From the NCBI RefSeq assembly GCF_964204645.1, contig NC_134029.1, positions 24,198,450 through 24,262,449 on the forward strand: DNA of 64,000 nt, written 5' to 3'. The DNA comes from Tubulanus polymorphus. Its lineage: Eukaryota > Nemertea > Palaeonemertea > Tubulaniformes > Tubulanidae. The notes under the pieces are model-generated. The model saw nothing but the letters and a program-made list of their open reading frames with translations. It had not been told where the DNA came from and did not search any database. Below are positions 1 through 24,500 of the stretch, in pieces. The translations under genes and the position numbers were made by a program. The first letter of the stretch is position 1. Every line of letters begins with the position of its first letter.

Positions 1-182
1 CAACTGGGATATCATTTTATGGTCACAAAAGATCCGACTCTACTGTAGTTAGACTGAAAGATATGTTTAAGAAATCTGCCATTCTGAAGTTGTGTATTGA
101 AACGTTCAGTTCTGAAGTTTGATGCTTCTCAGGTTATCTTTTCATCTTTCTGATTTTCTGATGTTTGTTTTCTTATTTTTAG

Positions 183-292
183 GTGAAGTGAAAACAGTTC
201 ATATGCATCGTTTATTACTATGTGAAGCAACTGCTAATATCATGGCGACTGGATTTAAAATACTTGGATTAAGAACTATCAGTAGAATGTAA
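183..292 (+). CDS. RARS1: Last coding exon of cytosolic arginyl-tRNA synthetase (partial)
   Basis: A polypyrimidine tract and AG at 181-182 precede an exon that opens with two bases of a split codon, then reads 35 codons to a TAA at 290-292. The peptide contains HRLLLCEATANIMATGF and ends in RM. This matches the end of the anticodon-binding (DALR) domain of class I arginyl-tRNA synthetases; animal cytosolic ArgRS ends in a very similar LLLCEA...LGI...RM stretch. The enzyme attaches arginine to tRNA-Arg in the cytosol and in the multisynthetase complex. Only this C-terminal exon is in the window; bases 1-182 are the preceding intron. The identification rests on a short but distinctive peptide. 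The mitochondrial paralogue RARS2 is less likely. Confidence 0.85.
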
Positions 293-1983: not shown

Positions 1984-4900
1984 ATGGGTCTCTGTAAGAA
2001 GAAGTCGGGTGAAATGGAAGTAACCGATAAGAAAGATGACGCTGTTCGATTGAAGAAAGAAATCGGTTTAATCCACGGAATCAGTATTATAATTGGAGTA
2101 ATCGTCGGATCAGGAATCTTTGTTTCTCCGGTCGGAGTTTTAAAGAACACCGGATCGGTTGGAGTAGCGATGGTTTTATGGGTCGTATGCGGTTTATTTA
2201 GCGTTTTAGGAGCTGTTTGTTACGCGGAACTCGGGACGACGATCCCACGTTCAGGCGGCGAGTATATCTACATCCTGAAGGCGTTCGGGCCGCTGCCCGC
2301 ATTTTTATGTTTATGGATTAATTTTATTTGTATCGGCGCCGTCAGTAACGCCGCTAATTCTCTCATATTCGCGACGTACGTTTTAAAACCGATGTTTCCG
2401 ATGTGCGAACCTCCCGAAATCGCTTTACAACTCATCGGAGCTGTTGCCATCAGTAAGTTCAACTTACCAGTATCTTTTTATCTTCAGTTTTGTCAGAATT
2501 AAGTTTCCTATAATCAATATTAGATAGACAAAATGTATTCAGCTACGAGAAGGATCGTTGTCAATTTTACTGGTCGATATGAAATTGTTTTTAATTGATG
2601 GTGCACAGGATTTTTCTCGAGAGCATGCAGTACAATGACATTCTACGATCAATCTAGAATTTGCGACTGATAAGTCGTCACATTACTGAAGTCATCTCTG
2701 TTTGAGTCCCAATTTTATCAATATGGACTTAGTATGCTTAAATGAATTGATTTAGTTTATGTTAGTGTTTAGTAACCGGATTGTTTATCGTTATTATTTT
2801 CAGCGTTTTTGACCGCAGTCAATTGTTTCAATGTGAAATGGGCTGCAAAAGTCGCAGTACAATGACATTCTACGATCAATCTAGAATTTGCGACTGATAA
2901 GTCGTCACATTACTGAAGTCATCTCTGTTTGAGTCCCAATTTTATCAATATGGACTTAGTATGCTTAAATGAATTGATTTAGTTTATGTTAGTGTTTAGT
3001 AACCGGATTGTTTATCGTTATTATTTTCAGCGTTTTTGACCGCAGTCAATTGTTTCAATGTGAAATGGGCTGCAAAAGTCGCAGTAGTTTTCACGGCATC
3101 GAAACTCATAGCTTTATTTACTGTAATCATCACCGGATTCGTGTATTTAGCTAAAGGTATCTATTGAAGCATCTTCCTCGGCAATTTGTAATGTATTTAT
3201 CTATGTGTGAGAACGTGTTAGCAGAGATAACTGATAACCACGATAACATGGATAATGCATACCCGTCGTTTTTGCAGGTAACACGGAATACTTACAAAAT
3301 ACATTTGAAGGCAGTTCATCCTCGGTTGGTGCTTACGCACTTGCATTTTATTCCGGATTTTGGGCTTTCGCCGGCTGGTAGGTTTCTCTAAAGACCCGGC
3401 TTCGAAGTTGTCGGTTTAATTTGAAATAAATTCATCTTTGATCTTAATGTAGATCTTTTGGCTTTGGATTCTTACAATATTTTAGTCGATAAACTATTAA
3501 GAGCCCTTGAAAATTATCGGTACTCGTTTCCTATCAGTTTGAACTTGATAAGTATGTTTTTGTTTCTTTTCAGGAACTACTTGAATTTTCTCGTAGATGA
3601 ACTGATAAACCCGAGGAAGTATGTATTATGTTTATATCATTGTATTCATTCTCTAAATAGAATGTTTATTGACCTAAGAAAGTGTTGAATTACCCTTTGT
3701 TAATAGTCTCCCAGCAAGAGAAGGAGAAAGAGAGGGTGAACTATTAGAAATTAAACGCAGTTGTTCCTGGCCAAATTTAGCTTGGTCAAAAATGCTTGTG
3801 TGATTGCGGCAATAGTTATTAGACCTCTCTCTCTCTCTCTCCCATCACGCTACTGTATAAACCGGTAAAACACAGACACGACTTATAAATGGCTATTTTA
3901 CGTGCTCAGTAGTCTATAGTCTGTAACTCGGGTGCCAGGTGGTGGTGACAGATTTTTTCCCATTCATTTAATGGTTTCGGTCGTTTATCGGAGCACTCAG
4001 TAACGACACAGGCACACATTCAGTCAACGCTGTCTGGTATTTTATTGATCAGTTCATCGCCTCACTGACCCTGAAATTAATCTACGTATTCCACGGGTGT
4101 TCACTACTCTCTCTCCATGGGGAAAATTGACATCAATTACTTGATGAACTTTGATATCAGGATTAATTCAGTCTGTGCTATTCAACAGTTTATCTACACT
4201 GACAATTCGGTAGTCTGCACTTGCAAATGAGCTAGATTATCACGTGTTCCACATGACAACATTTCTAAACATGTTTAAACATCTATATAACATTATGACG
4301 GCTGCGCTCTCCAACTGTCCCTGAATTTACCTCGTGCTGCCTTGCGGGGAAAATCCTGTTTCATAAATATCACATTGTAGTTATCTATTTAATGGTGATT
4401 TCCATAGCTTTGTAAACATAATGAATCAGTTGTTTATTTACTCATCAATTCACTTTTATTAATTATAGTTTGATAAGTGAAAGTGTCTTATTTATAACGT
4501 TTTGTTCATCTTGATGAACTCCTCTTTTGAGCTCTGAAAATAGTAAATTTATATTATTTGGAATGAAATAACGGGAAATGTTATGATCCAATAAAGATAT
4601 TTCATGGTTGTCATAAATGGTTTTATTGCGTAAATACTTAACTCGCTATTCTGATAGTCCGCGCTTTCAAAGAATATTTTAGGGTTCATTTCGGTGTGAA
4701 ATAAACTTAAGTACGTGTGATCAAACGTGTTACCAGTCGCCACAAAAGTAACCAATAGCAAGTTAATCGAACATTTGAGTTACAAAAAATACATGAAACT
4801 GCCCCCAGTAATAAGACAAATCTATGAAGGTACCGTAAATTGAATATTGAATGCATTGTTTCGAGTGTATTTGTAGCAATCTATCATTAACTACGTATAA

Positions 4901-7900
4901 TCATCAGAAACCAAAATAACCAGTAAACCAAAAATATTTGAGTTACTTTTTCATAAAACTCGAACCCAGTCAAAGAACTGTATCATAGAAAGTTAATTCA
5001 ATATTGTTTTGTGTGTTCTTTTTGTAGGAATCTACCATTAGCTATAATCATCTCATTAGCTATTGTAACGGTCACGTATATATTGGCGAACATTTGTTAT
5101 TTAACCGTTTTATCACCGGATGAGATGTTAGAATCAAGCGCCGTAGCAGTCGTAAGTAAAACATTGAAACATCCTTTAACATCCCCTTCACGATCATACA
5201 CGACTCATCTGAAGAGTAGCTACCGGTACTTATTCTTACTCAATACTGGCCACTTCGGTTGTACCTACTGCTCAAGTGGTGAAGAATGTAATTCAATTTT
5301 ATTTGGAAAAGCCTTCTATTTTCCTGAAACATATCGTATCATTCTTGCAATCTTCATACAAAGTTGCCTGATTGTTCTGCTTTGTGCTAGATATTGCCAA
5401 CCGAAGCAATATCTCAAAGTCTGGTAATATTACGTAGCGTTGGTTGAGCTAAGCAACTCTTAGGCTCGTGATATTGTTTGTCGAGATGAAGTCATATTTA
5501 ATAGAGTTTAAATTGTTTTCTAGTTATTTGCCGATCGTACTCTAGGTGTGATGGCGTGGATTATGCCGTTGTTCGTCGCTGCGTCTGTTTTCGGAACAAT
5601 GAACAGCGAAATGCTGTCAATGTCAAGGTTAGTTTAATGTCTCACTCCTGCAAGCTTTGAAAAAACTGAGAACTCTTTGTTCAGTAGTAGAATTAGTACA
5701 ACTTTGTGGCTTTAATTGATAAACTATTTGTGATTATTTTATAGAGTATTCTTCACCGGTGCAGAAGAAGGACATCTTCCAGTATTTCTGGCTATGATCA
5801 ACTACAAATGGCTGACACCGGCTCCCTCTATTATTGTTTTGGTGAGTACGTTCGCTCGGCGGTCCGAAATTCCTTCGCTTTAATGATGATGAAAATTGTT
5901 TAAAGATATGAAATGTATTTTAGAAGTTTCCCGGTAAAGAGAGGAATCCTGGGTCTCAGAGGGGTGGTGCAGGGGGCGAAGATTTGTTTATGCGGTTCAG
6001 TTAATTGTTTATATTGATTTGATGCTTTGTGTTACAGATGGCTATGACTCTATGTTTTCTAGCGAGTAATGATATATTTTATCTGATTGAGATGTCAGGC
6101 TTCGCGTTTGCGATATTGATGTGCGCGGCTATCGGTGTATTGCTGTTCTTACGATACAAACAGCCAAACATGCCTCGACCGATCAGGGTAAAACCAATCA
6201 CATCCTCGTTTAGCAGCGATCGTCTGAATATTCTTTATCAATCGTCGACTTCAAAACATTTGAAATATTTTGAAGTCAGATGATTCGGGTTAACCAAGTT
6301 AATTGGTAGTGCGACATTGGTTGAAGTCATTCCATTAATTGATTCTGATTGATTATTAGGTATATACAACTCCCCTGCAGTAAGACATTGATAAATTTGT
6401 CTGAGTGATATCAGAGTTTGATGTATTCTATTGAGTTAAACAGTTATCTCTGATTTAAATAGTTATCTCTGAGTTAAACAGTTATCTCTACATTAAAAGG
6501 TTATCTCTGAGTTAAACGGTTATCTCTGAGTTGATTAGATCCTACTGTTTTACCTCTGATTGTTCCCTGTAATGACTGGTGAATCAGTTTTGTGAATGTT
6601 TTTAAGCCAATGTTGCCACTTAGTGGTGGTTCTTCAATCATTTATTTCATGTATCGGTAATTGAAAATCTTTGCTTGCGGTAACAATGAATGTATTTCGG
6701 TTAAAGGTAATATTCACTATTTCAATTGAAACTCCAGTAGAAGATGTCCTCGGATCATTCCAAACTTAGCTGTCAATGATACCTCCTCAAAACTATCAAT
6801 AATTCATAAACCGCACTATTCAATGGGAACTCATTCTATTGAGGTGATGATGATTATGGTTTATACTGTGGTTTGTGCTTTGTAGAAATTTCCTAGTTGA
6901 AATTGAGTGGTAAGTGCTGGAAGTGGCTTCTCCAGTCAGCTAATCAACGGTGTCACCTTCCTCTCGAGACTAGCCTCCTGTCCAGTGACCACCCCAGACG
7001 GGTTTCCTGCCCCGTGGCCTCCCATTATAAACATATTTCTTAAACCCTTTTCTGTCACTTCTCTCTCATTTCAGATGATTTTCACTATTGCATTTATGAT
7101 GTCAAAGGATATTTTCTACCTAATAGAATTGACTGGTTTTACATACGCTATCCTCATCTGTTCATCAGTAGCAGTTTTAATATATCTTAGATACAAACAA
7201 CCCGAACTTACACGTCCTATTAAGGTAGTTTGAGACGCTCTGAGTTGAGAACTCAGGCATTGTGTGCTGTGTGACTTGAGTGTCGTTCATTCATAAGCTT
7301 CTTAACTAACCAACATTAAACAATGCATTAATTTCCGTTTCACTAAAAGTTTGTAATATATATTTTTGTCATTTAGTTTGTCTTTTGTTCCACTAATAAC
7401 TCAGTTGTCATTCCACTAATAAGTCTGTTTTAAACGAAATAGGTATTATTAACCTCCATCAAAATATATATCTCGCTGACCAGTGATACCACAGGACTCA
7501 GTTCAACAAGTTTTTCTCGTTTGAATTATGAGATCATCATGCATTACCAGTGCCTGGTAACAGTCATAGTTAACTACAGAACTGTTGAACAGGGTGCTGT
7601 CACCTAAAACGCTGTTACTTGTAACCTTGTTACATCTGTCATTAATTCAGAATTATCCCATTAATAATTATCTTTTTATCTTCTATAGACAAAAGATAAT
7701 GATGACTAGAGCCAGTTATCAATCTGTATTACCAGAACTACTGAGGTCAACACATATCTATATAGCCATTCATATTACACACAGTTCTACATATTAGGTA
7801 GAAGATAATCTTCTGATTCACATCAGATTCTGTCAGTTCTATTTTTTGTCAGGCGACATAGTGGTATTAGAACACTTTGATGAGATGTAACAGCTTGTGT

Positions 7901-9314
7901 AGTCTATACTGAGTATAGTAGTACTATGATAATATACAATGAACTTATGAACTCGGACGCATCTGTTCTCATCTACTTTTCACCGAGATGTCTGTTTCTA
8001 TCTGTCTGTTTCTATCTGTCTAGAATAGACCACCACAATCTAGAAATGACAGAAATTTAAGAAATCATTCCAACCTTCACAAAAGGCTATCAGTAGTTCA
8101 TTTACATTTATCTTAAGAGATTCCAAAGAACTAATAACTAGACTAAGTCATCGTGTAAATAGACTGGTTATAATTTATCAAACTTCTTGCACTTTTGTCT
8201 CCTCCTTATTTTTAATTCACGCATGCTTTTTGTTATTTAATCTTTTTCTATCCCGTAGTGAGTTATTTCAGTGAGACTTTTATTATTCATTGATACAGGT
8301 TGAATTTACTGTTCTTTTCCCTATTTATTACTACACTCTAAACATATTATCTTATTATCATTTATTTGATGATTTAAACTCGATCTAATATTTATCTTGA
8401 AATTGTAATAAGATGAATTTGTATCAGTAAGTATTGTGTTTACAAATCAGGAGCTAGTTCCATTCTGTGAGTTCAAATTTGTTCATTTTCTTCACCACCT
8501 TGCTGAGTCCCAATCACTCAGAACTGTGGAACTGGAATCCTGTGCTGTTGTTAATTTATAACCTCGAATTTGATTAATAAACTATTGTGAATCATTTGTT
8601 GAATTTTCAACCATTGGTTAATGAATAGTAGTTTGATAGTGTTCTGATTTTGTATTTTAGCTGCCAATTGGTATTCCGATATTTCTGTTCTTCTGGACGT
8701 TGTTTATCGTGGTATTGACGATCTACCAGCAACCGATGGAGTCTCTCATATCGATCTGTATATTCCTATCTGGAATACCAGTCTACTGGTTCGGTGTTAG
8801 CTGGGAAAAGAAACCTAAGGCTTTTCAAAACTTTATAGGTAAATTGAATGTTTTTGACACATTGCTTGTGATGTGATAAGTAGAGTCTTTGATTATCACT
8901 GTGGGCCAGTTGCACAGTCGTGACTTAAGTCCAAAAGTGGTCTTAAATGTTGAGACTGGTCTTAAGTTGTTAGATTGACTATATAACTAAGTTAGTCTTA
9001 GATTGGTCTTAAGTCTAAGTCATGACTATGCAACCGGCCCCTGGTGATAAAATTCAAGAAATCTTCCTACTTAATTCATGCAATGATGACCCATTGCCTC
9101 GCTCTGATTGCACCAGAATTTGATAGCCGCTTTTGCAGAATATGTTTTTGGTCTCTATGAGATCAGAGGCAAGTGAAGATTCTACTGAGTGGAAATTTTA
9201 TTAACTTTTGTTTCTACAGATTGTTGGACACAGCGCCTACAAAAACTGTTTATGGTCATACCGCAGGAACCAGCGTCAATCACGGAATCTAACCCCGAGC
9301 CACTGCTCGAGTGA
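1984..9314 (+). CDS. SLC7/LAT-type heterodimeric amino acid transporter light chain
   Basis: Reconstructed exons: 1984-2452, 3031-3156, 3278-3377, 3574-3618, 5028-5151, 5524-5627, 5745-5841, then 6038-6187 or 7075-7224, then 8661-8838 and 9220-9314 (TGA 9312-9314). Phases agree throughout, giving about 495 aa, normal for the family. The 12-TM APC-fold carrier exchanges amino acids at the plasma membrane, usually disulfide-linked to a 4F2hc-like heavy chain. Visible hallmarks are GSGIF at residues 42-46 (TM1), FAELGT-like AELGT, the heavy-chain cysteine in FPMCEPP (C141), AVNCFNVKWA, AFYSGFWAFAGWNYLNF, INPRKNLPLAI and the tail KKPKAFQNF...VIPQE, which is closest to LAT1/LAT2/y+LAT. An acceptor at 1955-1956 puts a 5' UTR stretch before the ATG; an in-frame ATG also lies at 2014. 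The exact SLC7 member is not assigned. Confidence 0.95.
2627..3080. repeat. Perfect 227-bp tandem duplication across a splice acceptor
   Basis: Copy 1 (2627-2853) and copy 2 (2854-3080) are identical by eye and share a GCAGTA junction. Each carries intron 1 sequence, a TTATTTTCAG acceptor and the first about 50 bases of transporter exon 2. Only copy 2 continues into the rest of the exon. If the copy 1 acceptor (after 2803) were used without removing copy 2, translation would reach a TGA shortly after the duplicated exon piece. Confidence 0.9.
6038..6187 (+). CDS. Transporter alternative exon 8a (TM9-TM10 segment)
   Basis: This is a 150-bp, phase-0 exon with acceptor TTACAG and donor GTAAAA. 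Its 50 residues include SNDIFYLIEMSGFAFAI and end in KQPNMPRPIR. By alignment to human LAT1 it covers the end of TM9 and TM10 up to the ERPIK-like loop. It is one of two equivalent exons (see 7075-7224); 28 of 50 residues are identical between them. It precedes the intron with the 19-bp repeat. Confidence 0.9.
6431..6532. repeat. 19-bp tandem repeat between alternative exons
   Basis: About five to six degenerate copies of a GTTATCTCTGAGTTAAACA unit lie in the intron between exons 8a and 8b. Confidence 0.7.
7075..7224 (+). CDS. Transporter alternative exon 8b (TM9-TM10 segment)
   Basis: This is a 150-bp, phase-0 exon with a strong polypyrimidine tract and TTTCAG acceptor, and donor GTAGTT. 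Residues include SKDIFYLIELTGFTYAI and end in KQPELTRPIK, the latter nearer the canonical ELERPIK of LAT1. Length and phase are identical to exon 8a, so either can join 5841 to 8661 in frame. Including both would also stay in frame but would duplicate TM10, so mutually exclusive use is inferred, not proven. Confidence 0.9.
8903..9041. mobile_element. Foldback (MITE-like) element in the last transporter intron
   Basis: The left end GGGCCAGTTGCACAGTCGTG and the right end, read on the other strand, GGGGCCGGTTGCATAGTCAT form terminal inverted repeats of about 30 bp around an AT-rich centre rich in TTAAGT motifs. There is no coding capacity. Target duplications are not obvious. Confidence 0.55.
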
Positions 9315-15500: not shown

Positions 15501-18500
15501 TAACTCTTACAAACTTTTGAACAACTACCGCCTGAACCCTGACTCTGATGTTATCTATGGATGAAATCAAGCGAACGTTGTTTTATTGAACTTCTGAGCT
15601 TGTTGTTATTTTCAGTTTCCGACCGTATCTCACCCTGAAACTCTACAGAAACACTACCACACGGTGCTCAATACAACGTTCATTAGTTTCCTACGTAACA
15701 CGTTACACCTCGAGCCGTGCGAACGATTGAGTATCGAACAGTGTTTGAATCATCCGTTGTTTCAAACGCCCGAATATCAACAACATCAACGTAAAACTGT
15801 CAACGAGATCCCGATTAAAATGATCGACTCGCACAGCATGCCTCAGCAGCAGCACAGAGACAAGAAATTATCACAGATAAATAAAACAGTGAAAAATAGA
15901 GAAACGTAAGTTTTGAAATTTCGACGCAGATTGGAAAATATCTAAACCTAGCAGTTTATTAACAGGAAACGCTGAATATCATCACGTGAAGTGAATTCAT
16001 CAAAATGAAAGACTTCGCCCTGAAATTAATCTCTGATTGAGAGGAACATTATTTGACTCAACCTTGCTGCAGGTTGAATCCCTGTAGTTACCAGGGTTTT
16101 AACAGATAGGCACAATCGGCAAATTCTGATTTTCTTCTCTAAAATAAGGGGATTTGAATTTTTGGTCTCTTGTTGTTCTTGCTGATGACGAGTGGCACAA
16201 TGGTTTGGGGAATTCGAGAGAAATTTGGATTCTCTGATCTGTACGAACTATGTTAGTGATACAATGGCTTTCAGTTTGTGTTGATGTTGTAATTATTTGA
16301 TTTTTCAGCGTTGATTCATGTAGAACTCCGTGCCCTCCGGTTGAATCAGATCAACAGATGAATCGTGCTACATTTGACGCCCAATCGGACGATCCAGTCA
16401 TAGCGTCATATCAATCGGGGTTACCTTCACATACTGCTGATAATAACACTGAATCAACTAACTGTGTAAATATAAACAAACTCGCTAAAACTAACACAGA
16501 TACAGACAGCTCAACTATAATTCAGGGAAATATCACTAATCACCATCTACAACAGACGTCTCCGAGAATGAGCGCGACGTCTAATAAACTCATCAAGGGA
16601 CAACAGCATTATCCTCTACAGAAAGGTCTAGCAGCATCCGGACTATCTTCAATTCCGGCCATTAACAATCGCTTGACCGACGGTCAGCAGCAGCAGCAGC
16701 AGCAGAAACCGATCAGTGGACGAGGCGCGAAAGAGAACAATACAAAAAATTCTCACTACGAGAAATTTACCGATCCGAGTTCTTCGAACTATAAAAAACC
16801 GGCGGCAGCTGTAGGGGGAGCCACTGGAGAAACTAAAACTAACGCGGTTAACAAAAAATTCGTCAAGACTGACGTAAGTTATTCAAAACTTCAGGATCTC
16901 GCGTCCATGAATAAATTACTCATCTCTGGCTCGGAGAGGAATAAAGTAGTCGCCGCGGGCGCAGAGATTATTCATAAAACTGATTCAAAAATCAAAAAGT
17001 TTCCGGGAATCGAAACTGCTGCGAAAAAAGACAAAGACAGTGATAATAATCAAGATAATAAAAATGCTAGTGACGGTGAGAATGTGATGAATAATAATAG
17101 CAAAAAGTCTCTGATGAAGTTGACTTCCAATCATACAGATTGGAGGCAGAAAGATCTTCGCAGTCATCTGAATAAAGTTACCGAAAATCCGGATTTAAAA
17201 GTCTTAGAAACAGCGGCGAATAGTGAAATCAGCGCGAGTAGTAATAATAAATACAATCGATTCCTGAAATCACATCATTTAACACCAGAGGGCACTGATA
17301 CCACCGCGCCGGACCACGGCTCATCCGTGAAAAACAACGAATCGGAATCAAAAGCGAAGAAGAAATTTCTGAAAAGTTGCGAATCGGAAGATTCGCTTGA
17401 AACTAAAACTAGTCAAACTAACAACGCAGTCCGAATTCACGAAAATAACTTACCAGCAAACGCATTCCGTACTCACGAAAATAACTTATCATCGAATAAT
17501 CCGGCTAGTAGATTACGTAGTTATACGTCGATGGATCATCATTTTCCCGTTTATAGTAAGAAAGACGGTAAAAAACACCACCAGGGTGGCGTTAAATACA
17601 ACATGTTTAAAGACTCGCCGATAATCAGTCCGCGTGTGAATTCGCCGGACTGGATTCCGGCAGACGCTGCCGGCAAATTCATGAAGAAATATACGAATAA
17701 CGCAGCAGGTAAACTGAAATCAGTTTCCACGGGGAGAGACGACACTGAATCTAATAACAACGGCACGTATTCAATCAGTTTCTCTATGAAACATCAAACT
17801 GATGATTGGAGAACTAAGGTAAATAGTAATACATCCGTAATACATTACAGTAATACCTGGGGGTTTTACTAGTAATACAGAGGAAGGGGTTCTGCTGCTA
17901 ATCACCATCACAGTCCTCTGTACATCAATTCTAATGAATGATCTATGTTTCATGTTCCAGCCATTACCTGTCACAAAGAAAGATTCCAAAATCTTAGCCA
18001 AACATAATTTAGGTAAGTTTCAATATCTATTGAAAGATGAATACATACCTGAAAAGAAATTAGTGGTGCCATTTTGAAGTAGGTCGTCGTTTAACAAGTT
18101 GAGACGTGTTTTGTTTACAGATGTCGGACCTTTGTATAATGAAAACAATTCGGCTAGAATTGTGATTGGTGCAGATCGTAGGCGTGGTCCGGAGACTGGT
18201 GGTGATTGGATGATTGCGGGTAAACGCAAGAAAAAACAAAAACAGGTAAGAACTGTTTAAACACAGGATTCTGTGTGTGAGATGAATTTAAACAGAAGGA
18301 AAAGTTTTTCACTGATTTATTCGTTTCATTTCCTAGAAAGCCTCGGATAATGGCAGTAACAGTAGCAGTAATCAACTGGTTCCTCTGCGTAGTATCACGC
18401 CAGCTCCTACTGATCTTCAAGATGATAACCCAGCATCACGAGCTGCTGCTGCTGCTGCTGCTACTGCTGATACTATACAACATGATAGAACTGAACCTTC

Positions 18501-20590: not shown

Positions 20591-21475
20591 CGATACATGA
20601 CATCAGAATTAGGGAAGTTCTGTTTATACATGTGTACCTATTAGATTAAATGAATCACTTCAAAGTGTCGAATTCAACTGATGATTTCGTCTACACAACA
20701 TATACCATAAATATCCAAAGGAAAAACAATTTGCTATTTCAAAATGATTTTGTTTACTAATTCTATGCAATTCAGCTATAAAACGGTTGAGGGCCGGTCC
20801 ACTTGTCTTCTGTCTTTAGGTTGTAAGATTTGCTAATTCAACCATGGACTCAACGTTTTAAAGTTCACGATTATAAACTAAGATGATCTAGGACGGGTTC
20901 TAAATCTAAGTCTTGAGGGTGTACTGGGGCAAAGATTTGGGCTATTCATGTCAATCTATAAGTCAAGGGGTAGATTTCCTCGCTAGTCTCCAGGGCCAGG
21001 GGGTTAATTATAGTTGTTTAGATGTTATATATATGACTGTAAAATTCCGTCCCTATTTGAATGATGATATATTTAATATTTGTTACGTAGTATGTTGTTG
21101 TTTTTAATCAGTATTCTCTTACAAATAGGACGATTCAAAATATTGCCAAAATATTGCGGCGAGGGTTAGAATAGAGTAGATCCGTTAATTCATTCTGTAT
21201 ATGACACCTGTTGAAACTTTGTACCTAATTTGTTGTATGTTTCAGGGCAAATCCTTTTAAGTATTGTCAAATTTTATACATACATATTATATTGTATATG
21301 ATCACTGATATTTTGTCACCCAAACTCATTTTTATTTGTTTTGGGAATTATATATTCAGATATAAACTGCATATAATGAATTATTATATATTGATTGAGA
21401 AATTACTATCTCTATTAAAGGGTTATAAATTCATATTGAATTCTGTTGAAATTGTTATTTTCTGTTCATCCTCAG
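20591..21475. other. Intergenic DNA before the 42-bp array
   Basis: AT-rich, with no supportable exon, RNA or mobile element. A plausible splice acceptor (TCATCCTCAG, ending at 21475) lies at its right edge, immediately before the repeat array. Confidence 0.4.
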
Positions 21476-21501
21476 CTTCGGCGTTGATCAATTGCTCTCT
21501 G

Positions 21502-24500
21502 AATTTCAGTGAACTAATCGATACAGCACCCCCTAGAGGAATATCATTGAACTACGCTATCAATACAGCACCCCCTACAGGAATATCAGTGAACTACACC
21601 ATCAGTACAGCGGCCCCCTACAGGAATATCAATATCCTACAACTTAAATACAGCACCCCCTAGAGGAATATCAGTGAAACCCTATCGATAGCACCCCCTA
21701 GACGTATTTCAGTGAACTACACTATCAATACAGCACCCCCTAGAGGAATATCATTAAACTACACTATCAATACAGCACCCCCTAGAGGTATTTCAGTGAA
21801 CTACACCATCAGTACATCACCCCCTAGAGGAATATCAGTGAACTACACTATCAATACAACACCCCCTAGAGGTATTTCAGTGAACTACACTATCAATACA
21901 ACACCCCCTAGAGGTATTTCATTGAACTACACTATCAATACAGCACCCCCTAGAGGAATATCATTGAACTACACTATCAATACAGCACCCCCTAGAGGTA
22001 TTTCAGTGAACTACACCATCAGTACATCACCCCCTAGAGGAATATCAGTGAACTACACTATCAATACAGAACCACCTAGAGGAATATCAGTGAACTACAC
22101 AATCAATACAGCACCCCCTAGAGGTATTTCAGTGAACTACACTATCAATACAACACCCCCTAGAGGTATTTCAGTGAACTACACTATCAATACAGCACCC
22201 CCTAGAGGTATTTCAGTGAACTACACTATCAATACAACACCACCTAGAGGAATATCAGTGAAACACTATCGATAGCACCCCCTAGAGGTATTTCGGTGAA
22301 CTACACTATCAATACAGCACCCCCTAGAGGAATATCAGTGAACTACACTATCAATACAGCACCCCCTAGAGGTATTTCAGTGAATGACACTATCATACAG
22401 CACCCCCTAGAGGAATATCAGTGAACTACACTATCAATACAGAACCACCTAGAGGAATATCAGTGAACTACACTATCAATACAGCACCCCCTAGAGGTAT
22501 TTCAGTGAATGACAATATCATACAGCATCCCCTAGAGGAATATCAGTGTACTACACTATCAATACAGCACCCCCTAGAGGTATTTCAGTGAACTACACTA
22601 TCAATACAGCACCCCCTAGAGGTATTTCGGTGAACTACACCATCAATACAGCACCCCCTAGAGGAATATCAGTGAACTAAACTATCAATACAGCACCCCC
22701 TAGAGGTATTTCGGTGAACTACACCATCAGTACACCACCCCCTAGAGGAATATCAGTGAACTACACTATCAATACAGCACCCCCTAGAGGTATTTCAGTG
22801 ATTTACACCATCAGTACATCACCCCCTAGAGGAATATCAGTGAACTACACTATCAATACAGAACCACCTAGAGGAATATCAGTGAACTACACAATCAATA
22901 CAGCACCCCCTAGAGGTATTTCAGTGAACTACACTATCAATACAATACCCCCTAGAGGTATTTCAGTGAACTACACTATCAATACAGCACCCCCTAGATG
23001 AATATCAGTGAACTACACTATCAATACAACACCCCCTAGAGGTATTTCAGTGAACTACACTATCAATACAACACCCCCTAGAGGTATTTCAGTGAACTAC
23101 ACTATCAATACAGCACCCCCTAGAGGAATATCAGTGAACTACACTATCAATACAGAACCACCTAGAGGAATATCAGTGAACTACACTATTAATGCAGCAC
23201 CCCCTAGAGGAATATCATTGAACTACACTATCAATACAGAACCCCCTAGAGGAATATCAGTGAAACACTATCAATGGCACCCCCTAGAGGTATTTCAGTG
23301 AACTACACCATCAATACAGCACCCCCTAGAGGAATATCAGTGAACTACACAATCAATACAGCACCCCCTAGAGGTATTTCAGTGAACTACACTATCAATA
23401 CAACACCCCCTAGAGGTATTTCAGTGAACTACACCATTAATACAGCACCCCCTAGAGGAATATCAGTGAACTACACAATCAATACAGCACCCCCTAGAGG
23501 TATTTCAGTGAACTACACCATCAGTACATCACCCCCTAGAGGAATATCAGTGAACTACACTATCAACACAGAACCACCTAGAGGAATATCAGTGAACTAC
23601 ACAATCAATACAGCACCCCCTAGAGGTATTTCAGTGAACTACACTATCAATACAACACCCCCTAGAGGTATTTCAGTGAACTACACTATCAATACAGCAC
23701 CCCCTAGATGAATATCAGTGAACTACACTATCAATACAACACCCCCTAGAGGTATTTCAGTGAACTACACTATCGACACATCCCCTAGAGGAATATCAGT
23801 GAACTACACTATCAATACAGCACCCCCTAGAGGTATTTCAGTGAACTACACTATCAATACAACACCCCCTAGAGGTATTTCAGTGAACTACACTATCAAT
23901 ACAGCACCCCCTAGAGGAATATCATTGAACTACACTATCAATACAGAACCACCTAGAGGAATATCAGTGAAACACTATCAATGGCACCCCCTAGAGGTAT
24001 TTCAGTGAACTACACCATTAATACAGCACCCCCTAGAGGAATATCAGTGAACTACACTATCAATACAGAACCACCTAGAGGAATATCAGTGAAACACTAT
24101 CGATAGCACCCCCTAGAGGTATTTCGGTGAACTACACTATCAATACAGCACCCCCTAGAGGAATATCAGTTAACTACACTATCAATACAGCACCCCCTAG
24201 AGGAATATCAGTGAAACACTATCGATAGCACCCCCTAGAGGTATTTCGGTGAACTACACCATCAATACAGCACCCCCTAGAGGAATATCAGTGAACTACA
24301 CTATCAATTGAGAACCACCTAGAGGAATATCAGTGAACTACACTATCAATACAGAACCACCTAGAGGAATATCAATGAACTACACTATCAACACAGCACC
24401 CCCTAGAGGAATATCAGTGAACTACACTATCAATACAGAACCACCTAGAGGAATATCAGTGAACTACACTATCAACACAGCACCCCCTAGAGGAATATCA

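What the first reader, a model, noticed from the sequence alone, without database searches (positions are those of the whole stretch)
6038..7224. Equal-length alternative exons swap TM9-TM10 in a LAT amino acid transporter
Seen: two 150-bp, phase-0 exons 0.9 kb apart (6038-6187, 7075-7224), 28/50 residues identical, both with good splice sites, both aligning to the same LAT segment. Established: in human LAT1, TM10 aromatic residues (F402, W405 area) line the distal substrate pocket. Inference: exon choice (MSGFAFAI versus LTGFTYAI) may tune substrate range or tissue use, a transporter with spliced-in selectivity.
Basis: partly seen in the sequence, partly recalled or inferred. Interest (0 to 1): 0.7.

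Follow-up and report, generated by a model that had tools for sequence, protein, structure and literature searches.

The report
Swappable gate exon in amino-acid transporter
An animal-like gene for a cell-membrane amino-acid carrier contains two alternative versions of the piece that forms part of its moving gate, so the organism probably makes two flavours of one carrier by choosing one piece or the other; this is a familiar trick of animal genes, seen here at a place in the carrier where we did not find it described.

Summary
Window 6038-6187 and 7075-7224 are 150-bp, phase-0, GT-AG-flanked exons, 28/50 residues identical; either one completes an intact 495-aa LAT-type (SLC7 light-chain) protein. 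They are sister copies (98/96) and both look long constrained: 39/50 third but 8/50 second codon positions differ, assignable changes are even (A 4, B 5), and 0 of 2000 neutral simulations match. In the 14 other LAT-type genes with a detectable exon 8 it is single. Double inclusion and double skipping stay in frame, so exclusion would need splicing control, which I could not identify. Spliced-in selectivity is only partly supported: 3 of 9 literature pocket positions differ, all conservatively (S/T, F/Y, M/I); F402 and the W405 site do not differ. Precedent: CAT-2A/2B (SLC7A2), which swaps the adjacent TM8-TM9 segment and changes affinity. Another LAT gene here has that segment's exon duplicated across a 42-nt intron; a third has three candidate first exons. 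No RNA data or relatives were available. Verdict: real, probably mutually exclusive exons; new member of a known kind.

The parts
1984..2452 (+). E1: start codon, N-terminus, TM1 to about TM4 (TM count recalled), light-chain Cys (FPMCEPPE)
   Evidence: gene model; Cys aligned
3031..3156 (+). E2
3278..3377 (+). E3
3574..3618 (+). E4
5028..5151 (+). E5
5524..5627 (+). E6
5745..5841 (+). E7, 97 bp, about mid TM8 to mid TM9 (LAT1 348-380, numbered back from E8)
   Evidence: numbering
6038..6187 (+). E8A, first alternative exon, 150 bp, phase 0: second half of TM9 and TM10 (LAT1 381-430)
7075..7224 (+). E8B, second alternative exon, 150 bp, phase 0, same protein segment
8661..8838 (+). E9
9220..9314 (+). 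E10, C-terminus and stop (TGA 9312-9314)
5949..5987 (+). G-rich intronic element about 50 nt upstream of E8A; candidate pairing arm (unproven)
   Evidence: one match in the genome search
6968..7022 (+). possible competing partner of the G-rich element, upstream of E8B (-38.4 kcal/mol; not clearly better than shuffles)
8473..8513 (+). partner of the G-rich element in the intron after E8B (-41.1 kcal/mol; suggestive only)
   Evidence: one match in the genome search

Best explanation
A LAT-type SLC7 light-chain transporter gene of an animal-like genome has its ancestral 150-bp exon 8 duplicated in tandem. The spliceosome includes E8A or E8B, not both, giving two 495-aa transporters that differ only in the second half of TM9 and in TM10. 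Both keep the same residues at most of the gate (F394, F402, and the Arg at LAT1 419 and 427, also found in LAT1), so both are probably working transporters. They differ mildly at pocket-facing 400, 404 and 408 and more in the outer parts of the two helices; the likely effect is tuning of affinity, turnover or substrate preference in different tissues or stages. Shown: the exons, frames, sister relationship, constraint on both. Inferred: mutual exclusion, tissue use, functional tuning. Not identified: what enforces exclusion.
For: Either exon gives an intact protein. E8 is a phase-0 exon of 150 bp (8) or 153 bp (4) in the 12 other genes where automatic placement found both boundaries, of 14 with an E8 hit, so A and B look like copies of one ancient exon. 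A and B are sisters, 98/96, on 50 columns. Second-position differences 8 of 50 against 39 of 50 at third positions; NG86 dN 0.36, dS not computable (saturated), two other methods failed. Neutral simulation under a simple one-rate model: 0 of 2000, with 3.25 stops and 3.4 identical residues expected. A and B are about equally far from the two outgroup exons (23 and 22 of 50 identical to one, 22 and 21 to the other); 4 and 5 assignable changes, 13 unassignable. Gate Arg pair kept in both (role in PMC7988154). PMC5740500 (passage) holds that two exons encoding transmembrane helices are highly unlikely to be cassettes. SLC7 precedent: CAT-2A/2B (PMC5803215) and fish CAT-1 (PMC7584565).
Against: No transcript or junction read was available. 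[quoted passage not shown] Nothing in the anatomy forces exclusion: 150 is a multiple of 3 (double inclusion 545 aa, skip 445 aa, both open), the intron between is 887 bp, and donors are ordinary GT. RNA pairing between flanking introns is only suggestive (2 of 150 shuffles, 6 of 400 and 36 of 300 real control segments reach it). Pocket positions are not enriched for differences. No relatives were available to show conservation.
Confidence: 0.78

Rival explanations
1. Both exons are alternatives, but the difference does not affect transport selectivity: it serves expression control (isoform-specific splicing, stability or trafficking), and the residue changes are near-neutral drift within a conserved helix pair. 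(This overlaps with the best explanation, which leaves the functional effect open.)
For: Pocket changes are conservative (S/T, F/Y, M/I) and not enriched, 3 of 9 against 19 of 41; by segment the gate half of TM10 differs least, 4 of 16, against 7 of 11 in the TM9 half and 7 of 14 in lower TM10.
Against: The copies differ at 400 and 404, positions reported at or near LAT1 ligands; in CAT-2 two residues account for the affinity difference (PMC5803215).
Confidence: 0.4
2. One of the copies is a relic that is never or almost never spliced in.
For: Weak donors (14/123 and 26/123) and a weak A acceptor (22/115).
Against: Even constraint on both copies and 0 of 2000 neutral simulations; intact GT-AG, frame and length; by eye, E8 donors of several other genes also depart from the consensus.
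Confidence: 0.09
3. The exons are independent cassettes, with an mRNA that holds both (545 aa) or neither (445 aa) as a regular product.
For: All four combinations are in frame; similar neighbouring exons are often not mutually exclusive (PMC5740500).
Against: Double inclusion adds a second TM9-half/TM10 block inside the LeuT fold, skipping removes a core helix; PMC5740500 calls cassette use of transmembrane-helix exons highly unlikely.
Confidence: 0.08
4. Assembly artefact: two alleles or two paralogous genes collapsed or misjoined.
For: A perfect 227-bp tandem repeat lies at 2627-3080 of the same gene, which could be an assembly effect or a recent duplication.
Against: A and B are 55% identical in DNA, far from allelic; of the exon segments searched (E1-E9) only E8, and the E2 fragment within that repeat, occurs twice in the first 12 kb.
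Confidence: 0.03

Closest known systems
CAT-2A / CAT-2B alternative exons of SLC7A2 (and fish slc7a1a/b exons 6a/6b)
   Same: Same transporter family (SLC7); one protein segment swapped by alternative splicing; CAT-2A has about tenfold lower affinity than CAT-2B (PMC5803215, passages). The fish CAT-1 forms (PMC7584565, passages) are compared by sequence and model; their function is stated there as still to be confirmed.
   Different: CAT branch, not LAT; the swapped segment runs from about mid TM8 to mid TM9. Here it is the next segment, mid TM9 through TM10, in a LAT-type gene. The CAT-2 position corresponds to LAT exon 7, which is duplicated in another gene of this genome (C3:9.37 Mb).
LAT1/LAT2/xCT/y+LAT light chains (SLC7A5-11) of heteromeric amino acid transporters
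   Same: Full-length similarity (LAT1 482 bits, LAT2 462, xCT 453, y+LAT2 435, b0,+AT 395), light-chain Cys, gate Arg pair.
   Different: Residues 401-405 of TM10 are G-F-A-F-A (A) and G-F-T-Y-A (B), against S-F-F-N-W of LAT1; an alternative exon 8, of which my library searches showed no report.
Tandem-duplicated substitution exons (mutually exclusive exons), e.g. SLC25A3, SLC39A14, CACNA1C
   Same: Neighbouring homologous exons encoding the same folded segment, with mostly conservative differences (PMC9741552, PMC5740500; passages).
   Different: Exclusive splicing is shown for those, inferred here.

Membership tests
SLC7 LAT-type light chain | Full-length match to solved LAT-type light chains and Pfam AA_permease_2 | tested here: met
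   isoform A; both isoforms
SLC7 LAT-type light chain | Conserved Cys for the disulfide to the SLC3 heavy chain | tested here: met
   C141 in FPMCEPPE aligns with the Cys of FPTCEPPE in 7ccs; that this Cys makes the disulfide is recalled
SLC7 LAT-type light chain | Amino acid exchange as a complex with a heavy chain | not testable with these tools
   needs expression
Tandem-duplicated mutually exclusive exons | Adjacent homologous exons, same length and phase, same protein segment | tested here: met
Tandem-duplicated mutually exclusive exons | Both copies under protein constraint | tested here: met
Tandem-duplicated mutually exclusive exons | One and only one exon in each mRNA | not testable with these tools
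   no RNA-seq
Tandem-duplicated mutually exclusive exons | Exclusion enforced by branch-point proximity, splice-site incompatibility or frameshift (optional feature) | tested here: not met
   887-bp intron, GT donors without a U12-like start (consensus recalled), 150 = 3n
Docking/selector RNA-structure class of mutually exclusive exons | Competing intronic pairings | tested here: inconclusive
   no relatives for a covariation test
CAT-2A/2B-type SLC7 splice event | Alternative segment spans about mid TM8 to mid TM9 | tested here: not met
   the window exons start at LAT1 381 in TM9 and run through TM10; exon 7 of the C3:9.37 Mb gene fits that position instead

The most novel reading that the evidence does not exclude
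The LAT family of this genome has used tandem exon duplication repeatedly, in three genes and at three different segments of the LeuT fold (first exon with about TM1-TM4, three copies; TM8-TM9 hairpin, two; TM9-TM10, two), so that splicing and start-site choice assemble transporters with different gates and selectivities from single genes; in the window gene the swapped part includes TM10, the helix that rotates into the substrate pocket of LAT1.
Probability: 0.3. Interest if true: 0.65.

Novelty: new member of a known kind. Interest (0 to 1): 0.45.

Why it matters
LAT transporters help decide which amino acids and drugs enter cells, and TM10 is the helix that several LAT1 inhibitors wedge against (PMC7988154, PMC11828871). 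A natural pair of isoforms differing only in this region would be a ready-made experiment on what TM10 contributes to affinity and turnover, as CAT-2A/2B was for the TM8-TM9 region.

Tried and rejected
Conservation in relatives: not possible; the own genome has no relatives in the held set, metagenome scans were capped at 0, and I did not scan the viral, phage, plasmid and prokaryote collections, where I expected no animal-type LAT gene. Species: a COX1 search found no match, so the organism stays unidentified; 'animal-like' is my reading of the gene structure. Transcripts: no RNA data among the tools. RNA pairing: the best I7-I9 helix (-41.1 kcal/mol) beats most controls but not convincingly (reached by 2 of 150 dinucleotide shuffles; 36 of 300 real segments of this repeat-rich window; 6 of 400 real segments from LAT-paralogue regions; 1 and 0 of 60 in two energy shuffles with the element fixed). 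I7-I8 and I8-I9 are at chance by the alignment score (86 and 83 of 150 shuffles; 87 of 200 and 68 of 100 real segments); by energy I7-I8 is reached by 3 and 7 of 60 shuffles. A weaker helix over the E8B pyrimidine tract (7035-7062 with 8042-8065) was not pursued. The region upstream of E8B is not unusually folded (z 0.65). Splicing-factor words (recalled motifs): 30 combinations of motif and region, two reached by 30 or fewer of 300 shuffles (GGGG in I7, 27; ACTAAY in I9, 15), nothing beyond chance. Rfam (gathering scores) and tRNA scans of the window: empty.

Full report
Observation. I rebuilt the gene: E1 1984-2452, E2 3031-3156, E3 3278-3377, E4 3574-3618, E5 5028-5151, E6 5524-5627, E7 5745-5841, E8A 6038-6187, E8B 7075-7224, E9 8661-8838, E10 9220-9314, every intron GT-AG, phases consistent. 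With A or with B the product is 495 aa without an internal stop; with both 545 aa; with neither 445 aa. Both isoforms hit Pfam AA_permease_2 at 1.1e-65. Isoform A matches, over nearly its whole length, a consensus xCT construct (517 bits), LAT1 (482), LAT2 (462), xCT (453), y+LAT2 (435) and b0,+AT (395) among 23 listed solved sequences. This is a LAT-type SLC7 light chain.

More than chance. Within the 64-kb window, against six frames, exon A scores 168 with exon B and 25 with the next place. In the own genome (267.8 Mb, 77 contigs; window at C5:24198450-24262449) A and B are each other's best match, 56% identical; the next best, 44-48%, are the exon 8 copies of a tandem gene pair at C5:9.85 Mb.

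Both copies are constrained. A and B differ at 20, 8 and 39 of 50 first, second and third codon positions; NG86 gives dN 0.36 and no finite dS, and two other methods failed on the divergence. Neutral evolution of one copy, under a simple one-rate model with assumed base frequencies, to the same third-position divergence gave on average 3.25 stops and 3.4 identical residues; 0 of 2000 runs had no stop and at least 28 identities, the highest being 11. Against the C5:9.85 Mb pair A and B are about equally distant (23 and 22 of 50 identical to one, 22 and 21 to the other); of 22 differing sites, 4 changes fall to A, 5 to B, 13 cannot be assigned. Neither looks like a decaying relic. A tree of 17 exon-8 sequences (14 from this genome, 3 from solved structures; 50 columns) joins A and B at 98/96, inside a four-row group with the C5:9.85 Mb pair at 98/97. 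The A-B path (0.68) is longer than the path between those two tandem genes (0.33; their own fork is weak, 88/41), so the exon duplication is probably not recent; that inference assumes similar rates.

How the family looks. By first exons I count 17 LAT-type genes, a lower bound (86 of 126 candidates scored), leaving aside weaker matches on C7. Exon 8 is single in the 14 other genes where it was found and was not found in 2 (C3:4.21 Mb). Automatic boundary placement gave a length in 12 of those 14: 150 bp in 8, 153 bp in 4; in the C2:26.29 Mb gene exons 7 and 8 read on without an intron, and one C2:20.58 Mb copy stayed unresolved. So A and B look like copies of one ancient exon unit, duplicated only in this gene as far as found. 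Two more genes carry duplicated exons at other places. At C3:9370508-9370604 and 9370647-9370743 exon 7 occurs twice, 97 bp each, 66 of 97 nt and 26 of 33 residues identical, with a 42-nt intron between; including both, or neither, runs into stops, so that pair could be exclusive by intron length and frame. At C2:26.292-26.298 Mb three first exons stand before one set of downstream exons; a search with that gene's own E2-E9 found no second convincing set in the 24 kb examined (best other match E 0.048).

Mechanism of exclusion. The usual enforcers are absent: 150 is a multiple of three, the intron between is 887 bp, and the donors GTGAGTACGT, GTAAAACCAA and GTAGTTTGAG do not look like U12 donors (consensus recalled). 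Donors and the A acceptor are on the weak side for this gene family (A donor 14/123, B donor 26/123, A acceptor 22/115, B acceptor 54/115, counted from the weakest), as is common for regulated exons, but by eye other E8 donors depart from consensus too. A G-rich element at 5949-5987 can pair with 8473-8513 after E8B (-41.1 kcal/mol) and less surely with 6968-7022 before E8B (-38.4), an arrangement like that of docking/selector systems (PMC6071210, PMC8042237: listings only). Controls leave it open: I7-I9 reached by 2 of 150 shuffles, 36 of 300 real segments of this window and 6 of 400 from paralogue regions; I7-I8 by 86 of 150 shuffles and 87 of 200 real segments; energy shuffles with the element fixed, 1 and 0 of 60 for I9, 3 and 7 of 60 for I8. 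Genome searches with each arm found only the arm itself. Without relatives I cannot test covariation and treat this as a lead only. Exclusion itself is inferred from the fold: PMC5740500 (passage) holds it highly unlikely that two exons encoding transmembrane helices are cassettes; the same paper warns that many similar neighbouring exons are not mutually exclusive.

What changes in the protein. Exon position i is LAT1 residue 380+i. LAT1 TM10 is the mobile helix of the pocket: Phe400 rotates into it, is Val in LAT2, and Asn404 lies near melphalan in a moderate-resolution map (PMC11828871, passages); that paper also finds the predicted distal pocket not to be a rigid, pre-defined one. Val396 and Ile397 touch inhibitors, and Arg419 and Arg427 bind Glu105 in the outward-facing state (PMC7988154, passages); modelling lists F402, W405 and V408 among others (PMC6803698, passages). 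In the two exons 396, 397, 401, 402, 405, 407, 419 and 427 are the same; 400 is S/T, 404 F/Y, 408 M/I, and 403 A/T. Of the nine pocket positions that I took from these papers 3 differ, of the 41 others 19 (p 0.71). By segment: TM9 half 7 of 11, TM10 gate half 4 of 16, lower TM10 7 of 14, loop 4 of 9 (the borders are mine). So the gate half is the best-kept part and change sits around it.

Comparison. The closest precedent is SLC7A2: CAT-2A has about tenfold lower affinity than CAT-2B through a region between TM8 and TM9 (PMC5803215, passages), and fish CAT-1 genes have exons 6a/6b from about mid TM8 to mid TM9, function unconfirmed there (PMC7584565, passages). In LAT numbering that is exon 7 (348-380), the exon duplicated at C3:9.37 Mb; the window gene swaps the next segment. 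Library searches showed no report of such exons in a LAT-type gene in the titles and abstract starts listed; one search listed 15 of 42 papers, and most subscription papers are not held, so this is weak evidence of novelty. Tandem-duplicated substitution exons as such are well known, mostly ancient and enriched in ion channels (PMC9741552, passages).

Verdict. A real and very probably functional alternative exon pair, probably mutually exclusive, in a LAT transporter; selectivity change unproven and likely modest. The recurrence of exon duplication in three genes of the family is the most interesting lead.

Noticed in passing
L014:6508-6604 and L014:6647-6743 (G000 C3:9370508-9370604, 9370647-9370743): Second LAT gene with a tandem duplicated exon 7 (97 bp each, 42-nt intron between, double inclusion runs into a stop), at the position of the CAT-2A/2B splice event.
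   Followed up: partly
L021 minus strand, 763-317, 4485-4036, 5573-5154 (G000 C2:26292317-26297573): Third LAT gene with three candidate first exons, each with an ATG-led open frame and a GT donor, before one set of downstream exons: alternative first exons or remnants of tandem genes.
   Followed up: partly
window 2627-3080: Perfect 227-bp tandem duplication over part of intron 1 and the start of E2: a recent duplication, polymorphism or assembly effect; it supplies a second copy of the E2 acceptor and about the first 50 bp of E2.
   Followed up: partly
window 6432-6532: 19-bp tandem repeat, 5.3 copies (TGAGTTAAACAGTTATCTC), inside the intron between the alternative exons.
   Followed up: no
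window 21292-23711: Repeat array with open frames reading about (INTAPPRGISVNYT)n; Pfam matches of the one frame scanned look like chance on repetitive sequence.
   Followed up: no
window 16358-17872: 504-aa open frame without Pfam match, by eye rich in Asn and Ser.
   Followed up: no
window 181-290: End of an upstream gene; by eye the last residues resemble the C-terminus of arginyl-tRNA synthetase (recalled, not searched).
   Followed up: no
G000 C2:20.565-20.594 Mb: Tandem cluster of five LAT-type genes.
   Followed up: no
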